Source of the DNA: an uncultured Arenicella sp.
GTDB lineage: Bacteria > Pseudomonadota > Gammaproteobacteria > Arenicellales > Arenicellaceae
Direction of reading: 5' to 3'
DNA length: 64,000 nt
Assembly (NCBI GenBank): GCA_938048185.1
Contig: CALIVT010000010.1
Span: forward strand, 1 to 64,000
The notes beneath the pieces are model-generated. The model saw only the letters and a list, made by a program, of their open reading frames with translations, made no database searches and was not told where the DNA came from. Positions 16,288-25,744 of this stretch are shown here, in pieces. The translations under genes were made by a program, and so were the position numbers. Numbering within the stretch: position 1 is the first letter of the stretch; the number at the start of each line of letters is the position of its first letter.

Positions 16288-17199
16288 ATGGAGTTAGTAA
16301 AAAGGATTGCGCTCTGCCTTATAGGTGTGGCGATTAGTTTTAGTGTGGTAGCTCAGGAAAAGAGAGTTAATTTTCAACAGAAGTTAATGCTTCAAGAGAA
16401 ACAAGAGCGTGAACAAGTAAAGCAGATGATTGAATCGCTTTCAGATGAAGATTACCGATCATATTTGAATGGTCGGCTCTCGCAATTAATGAAATCGGCA
16501 GCTACTAATAGAGCTACCGTTATTGTAGATGTTACAGATATGCAAACTTCTACAACAGCTTTAAAAAAATCGTCTGAAGTATTGCTCGGCGCTATGAAAC
16601 TCAAATCGATAATGGCCCAAGAGCCGCTAGCCAAAAACAAGCGCGCTGGCAATCCAAATTTCGATATGACTATTACCAATAAGCAGTGGGAGTTTTCAAA
16701 TAAGGCTGGGAGCCAGCAATTTGAACAACTTAATATTGAACTTGGCGGTGGTGCGGCAGAAACGTTACTCAACAATGCTGATGTCAAGGATGTTTTTATC
16801 ACCACCGGTTCGCAATTTGGAAGCAAGTACTCGGCAATTAACACTGAGCTGGGTAGGTTTTACCCGCCGGTTGTCGCTAAAACCTACGATGAAGATTTTC
16901 TACGTAAAGGTTATTTAGAAGACTTGTTAATCGCGTTGGAACAAAAAAAGGTTATGCGCATAAACGTTACTCTAAAAGGTGACCCCAAGACCGATACTTT
17001 ATCGGACGAAGACTACATCAAGGGTGAACAACTCACAGAAGAGGTGTTGAGCGACTTAAACCTTGATGACTACAAGGTAAGATCGAAAGGTCCATATGGT
17101 TTTTTTATTGTCGGAGGCAAAAAGGTTGTCGAGCAACTTAGCCAAGACTATCGGGTGGATATGATTTCTGAGAAAACGGCGACTTTGATACTTAATTAG
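16288..17199 (+). CDS. Secreted protein with possible tandem I9-propeptide-like domains
   Basis: 303 residues. Signal peptide to about residue 22 (SFSVVA/QEK), then a charged coiled-coil-like helix (LMLQEKQEREQVKQMIESL). Two segments have the strand-helix-strand-helix-strand rhythm of peptidase-inhibitor I9 folds: about 70-175 (RATVIVDVTD ... LGGGAAETLLNNADVKDVFI) and about 225-303 (KVMRINVTLKG ... GFFIVGGKKVVEQLSQDYRV). I did not recognise a named family; the I9 reading is inference. A remnant S8 peptidase gene starts 22 bases downstream, and the same arrangement recurs at 17686-21211, which suggests that this protein once served as foldase or inhibitor for that peptidase. Confidence 0.6.
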   Translation: MELVKRIALCLIGVAISFSVVAQEKRVNFQQKLMLQEKQEREQVKQMIESLSDEDYRSYLNGRLSQLMKSAATNRATVIVDVTDMQTSTTALKKSSEVLLGAMKLKSIMAQEPLAKNKRAGNPNFDMTITNKQWEFSNKAGSQQFEQLNIELGGGAAETLLNNADVKDVFITTGSQFGSKYSAINTELGRFYPPVVAKTYDEDFLRKGYLEDLLIALEQKKVMRINVTLKGDPKTDTLSDEDYIKGEQLTEEVLSDLNLDDYKVRSKGPYGFFIVGGKKVVEQLSQDYRVDMISEKTATLILN

Positions 17200-17221: not shown

Positions 17222-17632
17222 ATGAAAAGTCTGTCCGTAAGCGTTGCTACGTTTTTAGTTTTTACACAGGCTAACGCCGTAAACGTACATATTATCGACG
17301 GTGGTATAAATCCGTCCCACTATTCGTATATTCAGGAAAGGATTATTACCGAGGCTTGATATTCATATTCAGGAGCCGATAGCCTGTCTTTTAGAGGTCG
17401 AAACACTGGCGTTACGGTTTATGGGTATAAGACAGCTTCGCTTTGCAGGAATGAACAGTCAACGATGCGTGGTTCCAACGCAGCCATTATTCGCACAACA
17501 AATTTGCCAGGTCAGAGAGGCGGAAACTTTCCACCAGTAGATATTCCTATCTTACAAAGGTTTGGAGCAACGCATCAAGCGATGGTTGGCAGCATTGTTG
17601 AAGATCTTACCTCTGATTTTAACTTGTGGTGA
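17222..17632 (+). pseudogene. Truncated S8 peptidase remnant with an in-frame TGA
   Basis: A frame from ATG 17222 encodes a signal peptide (MKSLSVSVATFLVFTQANA) followed by VNVHIIDGGINPSHY, which resembles the catalytic-Asp motif of subtilases. TGA occurs at codon 46 (17357-17359). Reading through it continues for 90 codons to the TGA at 17630-17632, passing FGATHQAMVGSIVEDL, which resembles the His motif region of the intact neighbour (YGTAHGTRVYEEAL). No Ser motif is present. The context RIITEA-stop-YS aligns with RVVDELCWS of the downstream peptidase, placing the TGA opposite Cys. Most simply this is a decayed, truncated duplicate; a secreted 45-residue peptide or selenocysteine readthrough are less likely alternatives. 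Confidence 0.7.
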
Positions 17633-17685: not shown

Positions 17686-18474
17686 ATGAAGGGTCGTTTA
17701 AGGATGACTGCAACTTCCGCAGCAGTTTTAGCTTTACTGGGGTGTTCACACGCTCAGGCAAAAAAAATACATGATTTTCAGGTAGAAGCGACCCAACAAA
17801 AAGCCGCGTTTTCACCTCATAAATATCAAGGTAGAGCAGAGTCTAGCTATACCGAGCAATATCAGTTTTTTGTAAATCTTAACGAGATTAGCTCTTGGTC
17901 TGACTATAGGGGGAGTAGTAAGGTTGGCGAAAATATGACCAATGAGCAACTCGATATAGTATGGCAAAATATTTCACAAGAACTACCTGCAGAGACAGAT
18001 TTTTCGATCAGGAAAGCGACTATCGAAGCAAATGATCAATCAACCGTAGACGTCTATTTAGAGGAGTCTGTAGCTGAGCTAGAGATCTCTCTTAGTGATC
18101 TAATTACTGGCGTATTTGAAGGTGGGAATTCTGGTTTTGGTGTTGAATTTGTATCTGGGCTCAAAGATTATGTAGACACAAGAAAATGGGATAAGGAAAC
18201 AGGCTTTAACGCAACACAAGGTTTCCTGCTAGAAACTCATCCAATTGTGCGCGTTACCTTCGTAATTGGTAAAATTGAAAAGGACGGAAGCCTAGATTTA
18301 GATGTGTATAAAAAAGTGATTAAAAGGCTCGGGATACTCGTTCCACTAAATGAGCTTGTAACGCTTTCTGATGGTTCGGTGGCGGCTGAGGTTTTTGCCG
18401 ATATCAATCGATTAAACGCGCTTTATAACGAGCAAAAAGTAATAAATATTATTCCAGATTTATCTGAACAATAA
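17686..18474 (+). CDS. Exported I9-propeptide-like partner of the adjacent S8 peptidase (inferred)
   Basis: 262 residues. The N-terminus has a signal sequence with LLGC followed by SHAQA; it could be a lipoprotein (Cys 20) or be cleaved after AQA. The C-terminal about 85 residues (PIVRVTFVIG ... LVTLSDGSVAAEVFADINRL ... KVINIIPDLSEQ) show the 'xRVxVxL ... VxAEVxxxxLxxLxxxxxVxxIxPD' pattern of subtilase pro-domains, ending in the typical Pro-Asp. The N-terminal half is not recognised. The gene stops 16 bases before the S8 peptidase start, so they are probably one operon. Since that peptidase starts its catalytic domain directly after its signal peptide, this protein may act as a propeptide in trans. 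Confidence 0.6.
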   Translation: MKGRLRMTATSAAVLALLGCSHAQAKKIHDFQVEATQQKAAFSPHKYQGRAESSYTEQYQFFVNLNEISSWSDYRGSSKVGENMTNEQLDIVWQNISQELPAETDFSIRKATIEANDQSTVDVYLEESVAELEISLSDLITGVFEGGNSGFGVEFVSGLKDYVDTRKWDKETGFNATQGFLLETHPIVRVTFVIGKIEKDGSLDLDVYKKVIKRLGILVPLNELVTLSDGSVAAEVFADINRLNALYNEQKVINIIPDLSEQ

Positions 18475-18490
18475 CTAGGGATGGTTAAAT

Positions 18491-21211
18491 ATGAAAATTT
18501 TAGTTTCCACGGCAATTATGCTGAGTTTTTTTTCGTCGTGTATTGCTTTTGCGCAAACTGGGGTAGGGCAAAAAATTGCAATTATTGATTCAGGTATTTA
18601 TAGCGATGCTCTCCTAAAAAGCTCTAGAGTCGTTGATGAACTTTGCTGGTCGAGACCAGATCAAGCATCGCAAGATACTGGCTCCCGGCCCGGTGTTAAT
18701 GATTTAGAAATCGGATCGTTGTGTAAAAATGGAGATCAGAGTGATTTCCAGTCTAGTAATGCTGCGACATTGCCACGTATAACTAGACATAGCTCCTTAA
18801 GCAATGAATATGCAAATCATACTTATGGGACAGCGCATGGAACGCGCGTATATGAAGAAGCCCTTTCATTCGCTCCAGACTCTAGATTTATCATAGTGGC
18901 GAATGGCTACTATGACGCGTCTAATAGAATTACGTTTAATGGTGTAGATGACACTCCCTGCGGGGTTCATGGTCCAAATGGAAATGTCGATGATGATGGC
19001 AGCGTTAAACCTTCAAACGATTCGCGATGCTATAACCCTGAAGAGTCTTTCAGACAGATTGAGGTTATTAATCAAATAAGGAATTCGGGCAACGTCGCTG
19101 CTATCAATTTTAGCGCGGGCAGTATCAGTAACAATTTAATTGCTACTAACTGTTCGTTAAATAGCTCAATTTTTCAAGACCTAAAAAGTGATAATATTGC
19201 GTTCGTCGCTGCTGCCGGTAATCGAGGAGCGAGCGCTCCAGTAGAGTACCCTGCATGCAATCGAGACGTTATTGCTGTAGGCGCTCTAAAAGCTGATGGA
19301 ACGATTTATAACAATACAAGCCGAGGGATAGGGCAAATAGATTTTTTCGCTAGTGGCCAATCGTCAGGCTCAGTTTCGATCTCAACATCGTTTGCAGCAC
19401 CAAGGGTCTCGGCTGCATTTGCGCTCATTCAATCTGCCGAAGCAAAAGTGCGAACGGTTGAGGAAATTAAGTTCGCCCTAACTGAGTCAGCAACTAACTC
19501 GGTAGTGGTTGGCGGACGTAATATTCCAGTCGTTACAATTGCGTCAGCGAAAGCCGCTGCAGCTTGTTTAATCGACGGCACATGCACTGATACGACTCCT
19601 GACGGTCTCAACGAGTTAGACTATGCTGACACCGATGGGTTTGGTGATCTTTTTGATAACGACGAAATTAAGTATGACCTTCAATTTGATTATAGATTGA
19701 TATCGCCACCAGTCACGCCGGTGCCACAAAATACATTTTTTAACTCTAGTGATTTAGACGCACCTACAACCGCTTTTGCAAGGTTGGGTGATGTTGTTCC
19801 GAGTGAGCGAGATATTATCTTAAGGTTCGAGGGTAGGGCGGCAAGTAATAGAGCAAATAGGATCGATGTTTTGATTAATGGTGTTCGTCGTTTTTCAACG
19901 CCCAATTTTCTAAACGCTAGAAACGCTGAATTTATAATTCCTCGAACTATGTTCAACGCGGGAGCAAACACAATAACGTTACAACCTCGTTCGGCGAACC
20001 GTCCTTGGGGTGTAACAAATATAACTGCGGATTTCATGCCAATTGTGCCGCTAGTGCTTAACCTCCCAGACCGAAATACGTATGGTTCGAATCAAAATCC
20101 TCGGCGGCCAACAGGAATGAGAGCTTCTTTTGAATTAGCCGGTATCGATAACGATATTATGGTCGCCGCTACCGGTGAAGACGTAGATGAGCGTGATGAA
20201 ATAGAGGTGTACGTTAATGGCCGGTTCCAAGGCCATTTAGATAATGGCTCTAGGTCTGCTTCGTTGGCTGAACCTAATTTTTTCACGGTTGCACAAGCAG
20301 GGTTACGCGAAGGTTTGAATGTCATTGAATTCGTACAGAAAGACGGCGCCGTAGGCGGCTGGAAAGTCACGGATATACTGGTGGCAGGTGATGCAGGCAA
20401 ACCAACTTTACAACTCGGACAGCTTGATCCCACTCGATATGGTAATGATTTTGGTACAAATGAAAATGCACTTCAACTTGAAGTTGATTTTAGTTCTCGC
20501 TCACAAAGCGATCATAAAATTTCATGGAAGGCGTTTGATATCGAGCGAGCAGGGGATTTAGAAATCCTCTTAAACGGTACTTTTCTAAAAAATGCTAGAA
20601 CAACGGGCAATAACCGTTTTGGAGCTGTTGAAACGGTAACTGTAGCGTCGAGGCTATTTACCTCTGGTTTGAATACACTTACCTTTAGATCGAAAGTAAA
20701 TGCATTTGATGCAAGATGGGGCATCACCGATTTATTAGTTAATACCAGTAAGGTTATTAACCTAGAAAATCCTAGCAGTCTCAATAAAACATATGGGTAT
20801 TATCCCCTATATACTGGCGGCATTCCTGCGGGCTGGGTTCGAGATTACTCTCAAGAAGAATATCAAACACGACTCAACGCACAATTTAACAATACTAGAA
20901 ACGAAGATAGAACGCTTACAGTGGTTGGTTGGGATATAGACTCGCCTGAAGAAGTAGCGGTTTATCTTAATGGTGACTTCTTACAGTATTTGAATAGCGC
21001 CGCGTTATCTTCAATTTTTAGCTCGCCGAATAAAATAACGTTACCAAAAGACAGTTTGTCGCAAGGGATAAACACCGTTTCACTTAGAACGAAAGATAAT
21101 GTATTCGCTGGGTTTCAGAGTGAGAAGTGGGGTGCTAAATTTACTCGCTTTAGCTCATCTTCTGGTGCTGCAACGGTAACGCCAGCTATCATGTTATTGC
21201 TTGACGAGTAA
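18491..21211 (+). CDS. Secreted S8 (subtilisin-like) serine peptidase with four C-terminal beta-domain repeats
   Basis: 906 residues. The signal peptide ends near residue 21 and the catalytic domain begins at once, without a propeptide: Asp33 (IAIIDSGIYSD), His116 (YGTAHGTRV), oxyanion Asn244 (AAAGNRGAS) and Ser300 (ISTSFAAPRVS, with Ser for the usual Gly of GTSMAAP). Residues about 420-890 hold four repeats of 110-130 residues, each with a V-x-[LV]-N-G strand (LINGVRRF, VYVNGRFQ, ILLNGTFL, VYLNGDFL), a G-x-N-T-[ILV]-[TS] strand and a late W-G-[VI]-T-[DN]; these probably form beta-sandwiches for binding. The C-terminus is VTPAIMLLLDE. Its stop codon lies in the right copy of the flanking 35-bp repeat. 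Confidence 0.88.
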   Translation: MKILVSTAIMLSFFSSCIAFAQTGVGQKIAIIDSGIYSDALLKSSRVVDELCWSRPDQASQDTGSRPGVNDLEIGSLCKNGDQSDFQSSNAATLPRITRHSSLSNEYANHTYGTAHGTRVYEEALSFAPDSRFIIVANGYYDASNRITFNGVDDTPCGVHGPNGNVDDDGSVKPSNDSRCYNPEESFRQIEVINQIRNSGNVAAINFSAGSISNNLIATNCSLNSSIFQDLKSDNIAFVAAAGNRGASAPVEYPACNRDVIAVGALKADGTIYNNTSRGIGQIDFFASGQSSGSVSISTSFAAPRVSAAFALIQSAEAKVRTVEEIKFALTESATNSVVVGGRNIPVVTIASAKAAAACLIDGTCTDTTPDGLNELDYADTDGFGDLFDNDEIKYDLQFDYRLISPPVTPVPQNTFFNSSDLDAPTTAFARLGDVVPSERDIILRFEGRAASNRANRIDVLINGVRRFSTPNFLNARNAEFIIPRTMFNAGANTITLQPRSANRPWGVTNITADFMPIVPLVLNLPDRNTYGSNQNPRRPTGMRASFELAGIDNDIMVAATGEDVDERDEIEVYVNGRFQGHLDNGSRSASLAEPNFFTVAQAGLREGLNVIEFVQKDGAVGGWKVTDILVAGDAGKPTLQLGQLDPTRYGNDFGTNENALQLEVDFSSRSQSDHKISWKAFDIERAGDLEILLNGTFLKNARTTGNNRFGAVETVTVASRLFTSGLNTLTFRSKVNAFDARWGITDLLVNTSKVINLENPSSLNKTYGYYPLYTGGIPAGWVRDYSQEEYQTRLNAQFNNTRNEDRTLTVVGWDIDSPEEVAVYLNGDFLQYLNSAALSSIFSSPNKITLPKDSLSQGINTVSLRTKDNVFAGFQSEKWGAKFTRFSSSSGAATVTPAIMLLLDE

Positions 21212-21237: not shown

Positions 21238-21801
21238 AGTGCCTACTTTCTGCGGCAAGCAACCCTGTAAACTTGAAAAATCTTATAATATCGTTTGTTC
21301 CTAAAGGGCAAATTTAGACCAACTTTAGAATATATAAGGGCTAAGTTGATCATGTTTTAATGAAGCTAGAAGAGCATGGCATGAGATCAATTTGTTATTG
21401 GACCCAAAAAATGATCGGATCAACTATACGACAGCCAAAGTAGATAATGACTTTTATTCATTTTTTGACCTCATTTTTGAAGATCAGAAGATAGGCCCGA
21501 CCAACCGATGGGCAGTATGAATTAAGCAGATGATTCGCCAGCAGTAGACTTTACGTAGCGTTGAGATAACGGTTGTTTAGGGCTACTTCGAGATAAAAGC
21601 GGCTGCTTTTTAAATACTCGACGTGGGCGAATTTCGGGCGGTCGCTAATCTCTAACCATGGATGCTATAATAAATGGGTAAGTATAGTCAGCGCGCCTGA
21701 AAATTAGAGATAGTGAAAGTGGTAAGGGAGTGTTTGAAATTCCGTGTCAGTTCTCGAGATTAGAGGATGCTGATATGCGGAGAATTGATTATGAAGGAAA
21801 A
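21238..21801. other. Non-coding stretch with a possible gene remnant
   Basis: About 560 bases, AT-rich. A frame without a start codon runs from 21350 to the TGA at 21518-21520 and reads like protein (ARRAWHEINLLLDPKND, then DFYSFFDLIFEDQKIGP), so it may be the end of a decayed gene. No family was recognised and no IS end was found. The lipoprotein gene's leader fills the last part, including an in-frame ATG at 21730 that is not the preferred start. Confidence 0.35.
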
Positions 21802-22998
21802 ATGAAATTACTTAATTTTCGAAGGAGTTTTGCGGCCATTTCTGGGTTGTTACTCTCGATATATTTAGTTGGATGTTCCGTTGATAAGGAACCAAAACCC
21901 GTACCTGAAAAATATAAAAACTATCGACCTCTAACGAGTGATAGCGTCACTTCCAAATCGTTTAAGACAATAAAGCTTCTTGACGATAAAAAATATAACG
22001 ACGTGTTTTTATCCAATGTAACGTTTGATACGTCGACCAAACAATACACTCTGTTTGTAAATTATGTTGAGGACGAACAACGTCAAACTCAAGTATATCG
22101 TCTTAATGAAAACGGTCGATTAGTCGAAACCTTTAGCGTGGTCAAGGAGGAAAAAGCTCGCAATATACAAAGCTCAAATGGCGACAAGAATAACTCTGAT
22201 GGTCCTATATTTTATTTAAGCCACTATTCAGATGCGTTTCGAGACAATGAGGTACTTTTTTTCAAATACACTGAAGAGCTTGACATGAGCGCCCTTACCG
22301 TAGAGAAATTTGCGGCGTTATATGAAAGTGCAAGTTTGGTTTACTACGGAAGCGTTTTCGGTGGCTCAGAACGTGTCGTAGTAGAATCAGATCCGAGCTC
22401 GACCGAAGCGCACCCGACTACTATTCATTTCGACTATTTTATGACTTACATGAAAATAGAGAAAAACTGGATTAAAATTGAGGCAAAGATCTGGAGTGAT
22501 AGCGGCAAAATAGATAGCCCTCAATTACGAAGACAGCGCGAGGCGACAGCCTCTGCTCTTGACCTATTTTCCCTGAGCTACAAAGTTGACTATAGCAATA
22601 TGTTAAGAGACGTTCTGATTCAGCCCGAACGCTTTCCCGAAAAACAAAGACCTGACGTAATCTCGTTAAATTCGTTTAAAGGGTCCGACTTATCTGCTCT
22701 GGTACATAAGTACCAAGCTAAGGAACTTTATCGAGACTGCCCCAACTCTGGTTTAGCGACAACACACTATTCGTGTAAGCATGGTTGGACTGGAACTGAC
22801 TATTATAATGTAAAACTTGACGATGAAACCCTAGAATTTAAGAGCAAGGCTAGGGTTTCTGTTTTCGAGCCTGACCCTAGAGAAAAGGGATATTCGAAGG
22901 CAATAAAGCAAACCAAGGTGTTTATTCAAGTCAACGACGGGCTACTCTCAGAAAACGGGTTGTACCTAGTGGTACCGGTTGGAGGTAAGGGTATCTAG
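21802..22998 (+). CDS. Lipoprotein of unknown function
   Basis: 398 residues from the ATG at 21802, which has AAGGAAA just upstream and gives a proper lipoprotein signal (MKLLNFRRSFAAISG ... YLVGC, Cys 25). The frame is open for 24 codons further upstream. The mature protein is rich in Lys, Asp and Ser. It has a region of alternating strands (TSKQYTLFVNYVEDEQRQTQ), Cys residues near the end (RDCPNSG, YSCKHGW) and a C-terminal strand (TKVFIQVNDGLLSENG). No known domain was recognised. It stands alone to the right of the repeat-bounded block and shares its AT-rich character. Confidence 0.65.
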   Translation: MKLLNFRRSFAAISGLLLSIYLVGCSVDKEPKPVPEKYKNYRPLTSDSVTSKSFKTIKLLDDKKYNDVFLSNVTFDTSTKQYTLFVNYVEDEQRQTQVYRLNENGRLVETFSVVKEEKARNIQSSNGDKNNSDGPIFYLSHYSDAFRDNEVLFFKYTEELDMSALTVEKFAALYESASLVYYGSVFGGSERVVVESDPSSTEAHPTTIHFDYFMTYMKIEKNWIKIEAKIWSDSGKIDSPQLRRQREATASALDLFSLSYKVDYSNMLRDVLIQPERFPEKQRPDVISLNSFKGSDLSALVHKYQAKELYRDCPNSGLATTHYSCKHGWTGTDYYNVKLDDETLEFKSKARVSVFEPDPREKGYSKAIKQTKVFIQVNDGLLSENGLYLVVPVGGKGI

Positions 22999-24457: not shown

Positions 24458-25744
24458 CTATGAGTCATCATCCAGCAATAGTGTAATGGTCGGCACCACA
24501 CCTCCTATTGTGTTTGATGACGGTGGGTTAACTGGCGGCGCCGGGTTACTTGATATAAATTTGAATATGTCTCCGTCAAAGTCGACGATATACAGATTGC
24601 CGTTGGCGTCTTCGCCGAACGAGGCGACATTATTAACGTTGCCAAGATTTGGTGTTAGTTGGTCGGACCAAAATGTGAGCTGACTGAAGCCGTTGGCACT
24701 GGGAACTAACGACCATATCCGACCATTGGCAAAGTCTGCAAAAAAGTAGTTGCCGAGTATTTCGCTTACAGGGCCACGATAGCGATAACCACCGGTTACT
24801 GAGGTGCCGGCGAAGACACTACCACTGCGTTGGTATGTATAAATAGGCTCACGATTATCGGATGGGCGCGCACCGCCAACCGATGGTGTTGCAATCTCGC
24901 CTTCGCGCAGGCGCCAACCATAGTTTTCACCACCGGCGCTGCCACCGGGCTGAAAGTTTATTTCTTCTCTGGCACCTTGGCCTACGTCGGCAATAAGCAG
25001 GTCGCCGGTTTGGCGGTCAAAGCTTGCACGCCACGGGTTGCGAAGACCGTAAGCCCAAATTTCGGGCCTCGCGTTTATGCCGTTAACCACGGTATTGATA
25101 AATGGGTTGGAGTTAGGAATGCGATAATTGCGGGTATTGTCATTCAGGAAGTCATCGCCGTTAACATCGATGCGTAAAATTGTGCCTAGCAGGGTTGTGA
25201 GGTCTTGGCCATTTTCTTGAGGGTCGTTACCACCACCTCCATCGCCTGACGAAATATACAAAAAGCCATCTGGCCCAAAACCTATCCAGCCTCCGTTATG
25301 GTTGGAGGCAAATTGTGGAATGGTGAGTAGCACTTCTGCGCTATTACTATCAGCACGGTCTGGGTTGGCGCTGAGAGTGTAACGGCGAATTTCTGAATCC
25401 CCATTGAGATTAGTTACGCTGACATAAAATTCTCCATTGCTCGCGTAGTTAGGGTGAAAGGCTAGGCCGAGTAAGCCTCGTTCCCCTTGAGTGCTAATAC
25501 CACTTACGCGAAGGAACGGTTCGGCTACCACCGCGTTATTAGCAAGCCGAATAATCTTGATGTTGCCGCTGGCTTTTTCAAGCACAAAGAGGCGGCTTGA
25601 GTCGCCGCGAGGGGCGGTCGCATACAATGGTTGTGAAAATCCGGTGGCAATTCGCGCTAATTGAATCGCGTGAGCTTGAGTAGAAATTAGTGCTAAGCCG
25701 AGAACAATCAAGCCGGGCAGTGACAATACTGTGATTGGTTTCAT
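24458..25744 (-). CDS. PQQ-dependent sugar dehydrogenase-like (GDH/HHIP-type) secreted protein
   Basis: 428 residues. The signal peptide ends at THA/QAHA. A six-bladed propeller of the soluble glucose dehydrogenase type follows: QPLYATAPRGDSSRLFVLE, GERGLLGLAFHPNY, NHNGGWIGFGPDGFLYISSG, GTILRIDVNGDD, YGLRNPWRASFDRQTGDL, VGQGAREEIN and GENYGWRLREG. Such enzymes oxidise aldoses with pyrroloquinoline quinone in the periplasm. A Pro/Asn linker (NPAPPVNPPSSN) leads to the C-terminus GGVVPTITLLLDDDS, which closely resembles the tail of the S8 peptidase at 18491-21211. The 183 bases on its right side before the TraB gene contain no clear terminator. Confidence 0.85.
   Translation of the reverse strand: MKPITVLSLPGLIVLGLALISTQAHAIQLARIATGFSQPLYATAPRGDSSRLFVLEKASGNIKIIRLANNAVVAEPFLRVSGISTQGERGLLGLAFHPNYASNGEFYVSVTNLNGDSEIRRYTLSANPDRADSNSAEVLLTIPQFASNHNGGWIGFGPDGFLYISSGDGGGGNDPQENGQDLTTLLGTILRIDVNGDDFLNDNTRNYRIPNSNPFINTVVNGINARPEIWAYGLRNPWRASFDRQTGDLLIADVGQGAREEINFQPGGSAGGENYGWRLREGEIATPSVGGARPSDNREPIYTYQRSGSVFAGTSVTGGYRYRGPVSEILGNYFFADFANGRIWSLVPSANGFSQLTFWSDQLTPNLGNVNNVASFGEDANGNLYIVDFDGDIFKFISSNPAPPVNPPSSNTIGGVVPTITLLLDDDS

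What the first reader, a model, noticed from the sequence alone, without database searches (positions are those of the whole stretch)
17686..21211. S8 peptidase without a propeptide, paired with a separate I9-like exported protein
The peptidase's catalytic Asp lies at residue 33, only 12 residues after the signal peptide, leaving no room for the usual pro-domain. The gene 16 bases upstream encodes an exported protein whose C-terminal 85 residues have the pattern of a subtilase pro-domain, ending VINIIPD. Together they suggest folding or inhibition in trans. Known I9 domains are mostly fused in cis.
Basis: partly seen in the sequence, partly recalled or inferred. Interest (0 to 1): 0.72.

Follow-up and report, generated by a model that had tools for sequence, protein, structure and literature searches.

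The report
Subtilase with separately encoded pro-domain
A bacterium makes an exported protein-cutting enzyme without its usual built-in folding and safety domain, and the gene just upstream encodes a separate exported protein that appears to supply that domain from outside; a similar arrangement is known experimentally from one other bacterial enzyme.

Summary
The S8 peptidase (18491-21211) has a complete catalytic set with Asp at residue 33 and no room for a pro-domain.

In a partial survey of 50 distinct S8 genes, 6 lack a pro-domain; each has a small gene immediately upstream (5 seen complete, one cut by a contig end). The split S8s fall on one side of an S8 tree (98/97). Partners diverge strongly; 9 of 16 found stand beside a broken or missing peptidase yet stay open.

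Best reading: a trans-acting pro-domain (folding helper plus inhibitor). Binding, folding help and inhibition are inferred, not shown. The principle is known from Aeromonas sobria ASP/ORF2, so this is a new variant: subtilisin-type, partner upstream, multiplied, orphan partners retained. In passing: a terminal tag P-x-I-x-L-L-L-D-D/E on unrelated exported proteins of this genus.

The parts
17686..18474 (+). partner: exported 262-aa protein, proposed trans-acting pro-domain (its start could be a lipoprotein signal, LLGC, or an ordinary signal peptide, by eye)
   Evidence: no Pfam/NCBIfam match; homologues in G015 and G014
18217..18471 (+). C-terminal I9-like domain of the partner (residues 178-262)
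   Evidence: profile match of its group 24.6, 0 of 100 shuffles; AF2 model strand-helix-strand-strand-helix-strand, pLDDT 62
18491..21211 (+). S8 peptidase, 906 aa, signal peptide directly followed by the catalytic domain
18566..19501 (+). subtilase catalytic domain (D33, H116, N244, S300)
   Evidence: PF00082 match; invariant residues
21182..21207 (+). C-terminal tag PAIMLLLDE of the peptidase
16288..17199 (+). second partner, exported 303-aa protein with two I9-like modules; first copy of the cassette
   Evidence: N-half 19.2 (0 of 100), C-half 16.5 (1 of 100)
17225..17632 (+). remnant of the first copy's S8 peptidase: signal peptide, Asp motif HIIDGGIN, in-frame TGA at 17357-17359, ends before a Ser region
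   Evidence: G004 has the same start without that stop as far as its contig goes

Best explanation
The two genes are a split subtilase. The pro-domain that is normally fused to the enzyme is made as a separate exported protein from the gene directly upstream. Both are exported; the I9-like C-terminal domain of the partner packs against the catalytic domain, helps it fold and keeps it inactive, with its free C-terminal tail at or near the active-site cleft. The peptidase, which alone carries the terminal tag, is then delivered to the surface or outside and the partner is lost or degraded. Shown here: missing pro-domain, intact catalytic residues, tight conserved pairing, I9-like C-terminal profile, one grouping of the split S8s. 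Inferred: binding, folding help, inhibition, different destinations, and origin by splitting of a once fused gene.
For: No pro-domain and intact catalytic residues. A small gene directly upstream of 6 of 6 pro-less S8 genes. Three partner groups score 24.9, 24.6 and 19.0 against a cis pro-domain profile, 0 of 100 shuffles as high for each; the nine best of 129 single sequences are all partners. AF2 model with the I9 order of strands and helices. Split S8s are one side of a branch with support 98/97 in a tree of 27. A second cassette copy next door. Precedent: ASP needs ORF2, whose C-terminus lies at the active site and inhibits (passages of PMC5638518).
Against: No Pfam model matches. The 262-aa protein alone is rank 55 of 129, and three other partners rank 73, 75 and 94. 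Reversed-profile controls are not far below for the 303-aa group (15.6 against 19.2 for its N-half, 12.4 against 16.5 for its C-half). The model has pLDDT 62 and the structure searches name no I9 entry in the rows shown. 9 of 16 partners stand beside a broken or missing peptidase, which a pure folding helper does not predict. The tree carries a long-branch warning.
Confidence: 0.72

Rival explanations
1. The partner is only an inhibitor or an immunity protein. The peptidase folds unaided, and the partner protects the producer, or relatives without the enzyme, from it.
For: 9 of 16 partners remain open beside a broken or missing peptidase. Two peptidase-less paralogues of G017 differ with omega 0.228. 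Known free-standing I9-type proteins are regarded as inhibitors (passages of PMC6993865).
Against: The enzymes that have the partner are the ones that lack their own pro-domain, which suggests replacement of both functions. Orphans may be recent, and the search favours intact partners.
Confidence: 0.15
2. The partner is an external chaperone not derived from I9; [quoted passage not shown]
For: No Pfam match; Foldseek and VIA give many ferredoxin-like families alike; partner groups are not clearly kin to each other by profile comparison.
Against: Profile matches to cis pro-domains beat shuffled profiles in three groups and top the list of 129 sequences.
Confidence: 0.07
3. The two genes are neighbours without a common function; the partner is another exported protein.
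For: Partner sequences are very unlike between loci (11-26% identity to the first row).
Against: The arrangement recurs at every pro-less S8 surveyed, in several genomes and as a tandem copy.
Confidence: 0.04
4. The peptidase is itself decaying and its context says nothing about function.
For: Sister copies in the same genome are broken: first C10 copy, C1 (one in-frame TAA), C19 (frameshifts).
Against: 906 codons are open, catalytic residues and terminal tag are kept, and the C30 copy is open too.
Confidence: 0.02

Closest known systems
Aeromonas sobria serine protease ASP with external chaperone ORF2 (passages of PMC5638518, which cites J Biol Chem 2015;290:11130; that paper was not held)
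   Same: A subtilase without propeptide next to a separate gene whose product is needed for the active form and also inhibits it; the chaperone's C-terminus lies at the active site.
   Different: ORF2 is encoded just downstream, here the partner is upstream. ASP is kexin-like with a P-domain (recalled); here no such domain matched and the nearest solved sequences are subtilisins. No solved chain matched the partner; whether ORF2 is among those chains was not checked.
Free-standing I9-type inhibitors: Pleurotus POIA1, yeast peptidase B inhibitor, Arabidopsis SPI-1, Toxoplasma MIC5, Plasmodium SUB1-ProM (passages of PMC6993865)
   Same: Small separate proteins with the pro-domain fold that act on subtilases; SUB1-ProM is encoded next to subtilase genes.
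   Different: Eukaryotic and seen there as regulatory inhibitors independent of chaperone activity; here the enzyme has no propeptide of its own.
Ordinary S8 precursors with fused pro-domain, as in relatives of this genus (e.g. L021, L064)
   Same: Same catalytic domain type; the fused pro-domains resemble the partners at the third strand, second helix and fourth strand.
   Different: Fused in one chain and cleaved; here two genes with two signal peptides.
S8 genes of G166 and G372 (L119, L132) with an upstream exported I9-like protein of about 135 aa
   Same: Upstream free-standing I9-like exported protein (by eye; no Pfam match).
   Different: Those peptidases keep a fused pro-domain as well.

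Membership tests
Peptidase S8 (PF00082) | profile match above the curated cut-off | tested here: met
   58.5 bits against 21.8
Peptidase S8 (PF00082) | catalytic Asp, His, Ser and oxyanion Asn | tested here: met
   D33, H116, S300, N244 invariant in six relatives
Inhibitor_I9 (PF05922) | profile match above the curated cut-off | tested here: not met
   no match for the 262-aa and 303-aa proteins at E up to 1, nor for five further partners at E up to 5; so not filed as a PF05922 member
[quoted passage not shown]
   order of elements as expected in the model, but pLDDT 62 and no I9 entry in the rows shown
Inhibitor_I9-type pro-domain (working resemblance) | profile similarity to fused pro-domains of relatives | tested here: met
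   24.9, 24.6, 19.0 with 0 of 100 shuffles as high; weaker for single sequences, 262-aa protein rank 55 of 129
Inhibitor_I9-type pro-domain (working resemblance) | inhibits or folds a subtilase | not testable with these tools
   needs expression and assay
ASP/ORF2 external-chaperone system | subtilase without propeptide beside a separate exported protein | tested here: met
ASP/ORF2 external-chaperone system | chaperone gene just downstream of the protease gene | tested here: not met
   partner is upstream in the split cassettes seen; the downstream order of ORF2 is from PMC5638518
ASP/ORF2 external-chaperone system | kexin-like protease with P-domain (recalled) | tested here: not met
   only PF00082 matched at E up to 1; nearest solved sequences among the best 60 shown are mostly subtilisins
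ASP/ORF2 external-chaperone system | sequence kinship of the partner to ORF2 | tested here: inconclusive
   no solved chain matched; ORF2 itself was not fetched or compared

The most novel reading that the evidence does not exclude
These cassettes are a fast-diversifying secreted protease/immunity system: each S8 enzyme acts on competitors or neighbours, the I9-like partner both matures it and protects the producer, and orphan partners left beside dead or lost enzyme genes are kept as immunity against the enzymes of relatives.
Probability: 0.1. Interest if true: 0.78.

Novelty: new variant of a known kind. Interest (0 to 1): 0.52.

Why it matters
A 2022 survey of subtilases names ASP as the exception to the rule that an N-terminal propeptide acts as intramolecular chaperone (passage of PMC9549277). 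A second lineage, subtilisin-type and with several diverged natural pairs in one genus, gives a natural set for asking how a folding helper and its enzyme stay matched once they are no longer one chain, and what a partner does after its enzyme has died. The orphan partners make it directly testable whether such proteins serve as inhibitors of other enzymes.

Tried and rejected
Single-sequence AF2 of the mature 262-aa protein gave pLDDT 37 and was not used. The N-terminal half of the 262-aa group as a second I9 module is not supported: 11.2, with 13 of 100 shuffles as high. In the rows shown there is no I9 or propeptide entry; that list is a second look at Foldseek's own hits, so it does not count against I9. 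Profile comparison of the partner groups with each other gave no clear kinship between groups. A first profile of cis pro-domains gave weaker matches (P 0.04, 0.008 and 0.08) than the second, drawn from S8 genes nearer to the split ones plus two free-standing neighbours; I report both. Two scans of viral contigs found no relative of the peptidase or of the 303-aa protein. The tag pattern outside the genus looks close to background: 34 of 370 genomes of the class had a match, 4 of them of this genus, and the reversed control pattern also hit some others. Promoter-like sites (7, shuffles 12.5) and terminator-like sites (6, shuffles 5.0) are not above chance. Paper searches for a bacterial subtilase with a separate propeptide gene showed only ASP/ORF2 among the titles and abstracts listed; most subscription papers are not held.

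Full report
WHAT IS THERE. The window is contig C10, bases 1-64000, of a 3.1-Mb genome in 42 contigs. One of two related loci found with a title is from an uncultured Arenicella, the other from an unnamed gammaproteobacterium, so the genus is probably Arenicella (inference). The 262-aa ORF at 17686-18474 and the 906-aa ORF at 18491-21211 are as described, 16 bases apart. The 906-aa protein is a subtilase (PF00082, 58.5 bits, cut-off 21.8). D33, H116, N244 and S300 are invariant in six relatives. Behind the probable signal peptide about a dozen residues remain before D33, so there is no room for a pro-domain. Its C-terminal part matches no Pfam model.

A SECOND CASSETTE. Directly upstream lies another exported protein, 303 aa (16288-17199), then a short reading frame from 17225 to 17632 that begins with a signal peptide and the Asp motif HIIDGGIN, has an in-frame TGA at 17357-17359 and ends before any Ser region. 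G004, of the same genus, has the same 303-aa protein (76% identity), followed by the same peptidase start without that stop as far as its contig goes. So the window holds two copies of the arrangement, one of them dead.

HOW GENERAL THE PAIRING IS. Further copies lie in the same genome on C1 (peptidase with one TAA at codon 35), C19 (frameshifted) and C30 (open), and in G014, G008, G015, G004, G041 and G069. A script found 50 distinct S8 genes in the loci held, by patterns for the Asp and Ser motifs. It is a partial sample: loci were gathered by similarity to this peptidase and to S8 and I9 models, broken genes and genes with other motif spellings are not counted, and related genes count apart. 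In 6 of the 50 the Asp motif lies within the first 30 residues; in the other 44 it lies at residue 97 or later, and at 150 or later in the 40 whose start is not cut by a contig end. For 4 of the 6 the script itself found the upstream gene; for G041 and G069 it is seen in longer loci. The G069 one is cut by the contig end, so its length and signal peptide are unknown. The script's crude signal test failed for the G014 partner, which has a clear hydrophobic start by eye. Of the 44 others, 11 have an ORF of 100-340 aa in that place, 2 of them (G166, G372) with a signal peptide by the script and I9-like by eye; a third (G016) looks exported by eye but not I9-like.

IS THE PARTNER A PRO-DOMAIN? No I9 match was found for the partners tested. 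PF05922 itself is seen in 13 of 109 genomes of the order, with 15 matches, and for all 15 the contig, strand and reading-frame length agree with an S8 match. I built a profile of 18 rows: 16 fused pro-domains of S8 genes and the 2 free-standing neighbours of G166 and G372. Three partner groups score 24.9 (9 sequences), 24.6 (3 sequences, the window's 262-aa group) and 19.0 (2 sequences, the 303-aa group); none of 100 column-shuffled profiles is as high for any of them, the best being 13.4, 14.6 and 17.0. The reversed profile scores 12.8, 9.6 and 15.5. Taken singly, the nine best of 129 sequences (16 partners, 113 other ORFs of 120-340 aa) are all partners; the best control reaches 20.6, close to the lowest of those nine, 20.7. 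The window's 262-aa protein alone is only rank 55 and three other partners rank 73, 75 and 94. In the top nine the match covers the region of the second helix and fourth strand, in eight of them near the C-terminus; in the G004 303-aa homologue it lies in the N-terminal half. Halves tested apart: C-half of the 262-aa group 24.6 (0 of 100), its N-half 11.2 (13 of 100, not supported), N-half of the 303-aa group 19.2 (0 of 100, reversed 15.6), its C-half 16.5 over 85 columns (1 of 100, reversed 12.4). AF2 on three sequences models the C-terminal 85 residues of the 262-aa protein as strand-helix-strand-strand-helix-strand, mean pLDDT 62, pTM 0.44. Foldseek and VIA find ferredoxin-like folds of many kinds (best E 0.047, best Z 6.6) and no I9 entry among the rows shown. 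I therefore say that the domain works like, and probably descends from, a pro-domain, but I do not file it under PF05922.

EVOLUTION. In a tree of 27 catalytic domains the 7 split ones are one side of a branch with support 98/97 and the 20 fused ones the other. Branches in the split group are very long and the program warns of false joins. Of 16 partner genes found, 6 stand beside an open peptidase (second C10 copy, C30, G014 C65, G008, G041, G069), 1 cannot be judged (G004 C163, contig end) and 9 stand beside a broken or missing one (first C10 copy, C1, C19, G015, both genes on G014 C246, G017 C1, G017 C6, G004 C80). The 16 are open as far as they are seen, but the searches favour intact genes. 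Two peptidase-less paralogues of G017 differ with omega 0.228 over 253 codons; the 303-aa pair has 0.125 over 303 codons, its peptidase start 0.211 over 107. This fits purifying selection, but part of that time may precede the loss of the enzyme. Beyond the genus, profiles of two partner groups found no convincing match in the order; G041 and G069, of other families of the order, came to light through their peptidases.

MECHANISM. In known cases the pro-domain caps two helices of the enzyme with a Glu and an Asp (69 and 71 in subtilisin BPN') and lays its C-terminal tail into the active-site groove (passages of PMC6993865). By eye, D258 of the 262-aa protein falls on Asp71, with four residues after it; the tails of the C1, G014 and G008 partners are longer and acidic. 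In ASP/ORF2 the C-terminal Lys of the chaperone seems to contact the catalytic centre, and the chaperone inhibits with IC50 84.3 nM (passages of PMC5638518). I infer the same order here: export, folding help and inhibition, then separation. The 6 split peptidases with complete ends all carry the terminal tag or a close form by a loose pattern; 2 of 38 fused ones do, one of them doubtful by eye. Of the partners the loose pattern flags only the 303-aa protein, which I discount by eye. Separate destinations are therefore plausible but not shown.

NOVELTY. The principle is known from ASP/ORF2, with homologous operons in Vibrio, Shewanella, Chromobacterium and Pseudoalteromonas (PMC5638518), and free-standing I9-type inhibitors are known in eukaryotes. 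What I did not find described is the subtilisin-type enzyme with upstream order, the multiplication and decay within one genus, the partner with two modules and the persistent orphan partners. I rate it a new variant of a known kind.

Noticed in passing
21182-21207 (+) and 24468-24493 (-); loci L137-L161: Terminal tag P-x-I-x-L-L-L-D-D/E. The S8 peptidase and an unrelated glucose/sorbosone dehydrogenase-like protein of the window share it at their C-termini. The exact DNA pattern has 25 matches in 10 of 21 relatives (all 10 among the 13 of this genus), 0 for the reversed control; 19 of 25 lie within 6 residues of a C-terminus, 4 shortly after a signal-peptide-like start, 2 inside. A possible sorting or secretion signal.
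   Followed up: partly
L119:261-668 and L132:397-810 (G166, G372): Free-standing exported I9-like proteins of about 135 aa directly upstream of S8 peptidases that keep their own fused pro-domain; no Pfam match.
   Followed up: partly
L040 (C1), L041 (C19) in the window's genome: Paralogous cassettes with broken peptidases but open partners: one in-frame TAA at codon 35 on C1, frameshifts on C19.
   Followed up: yes
L089:2548-4365 (G014 C246): Two different partner genes in tandem, a peptidase remnant between them and none behind the second.
   Followed up: partly
18510-18533: A small hairpin followed by a run of eight T inside the signal-peptide codons of the S8 gene; not above chance as a terminator, but such a run could slip.
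   Followed up: no
21730-22998: 422-aa ORF with a lipoprotein-like start (LVGC) behind the cassette, without a match above a curated cut-off.
   Followed up: no
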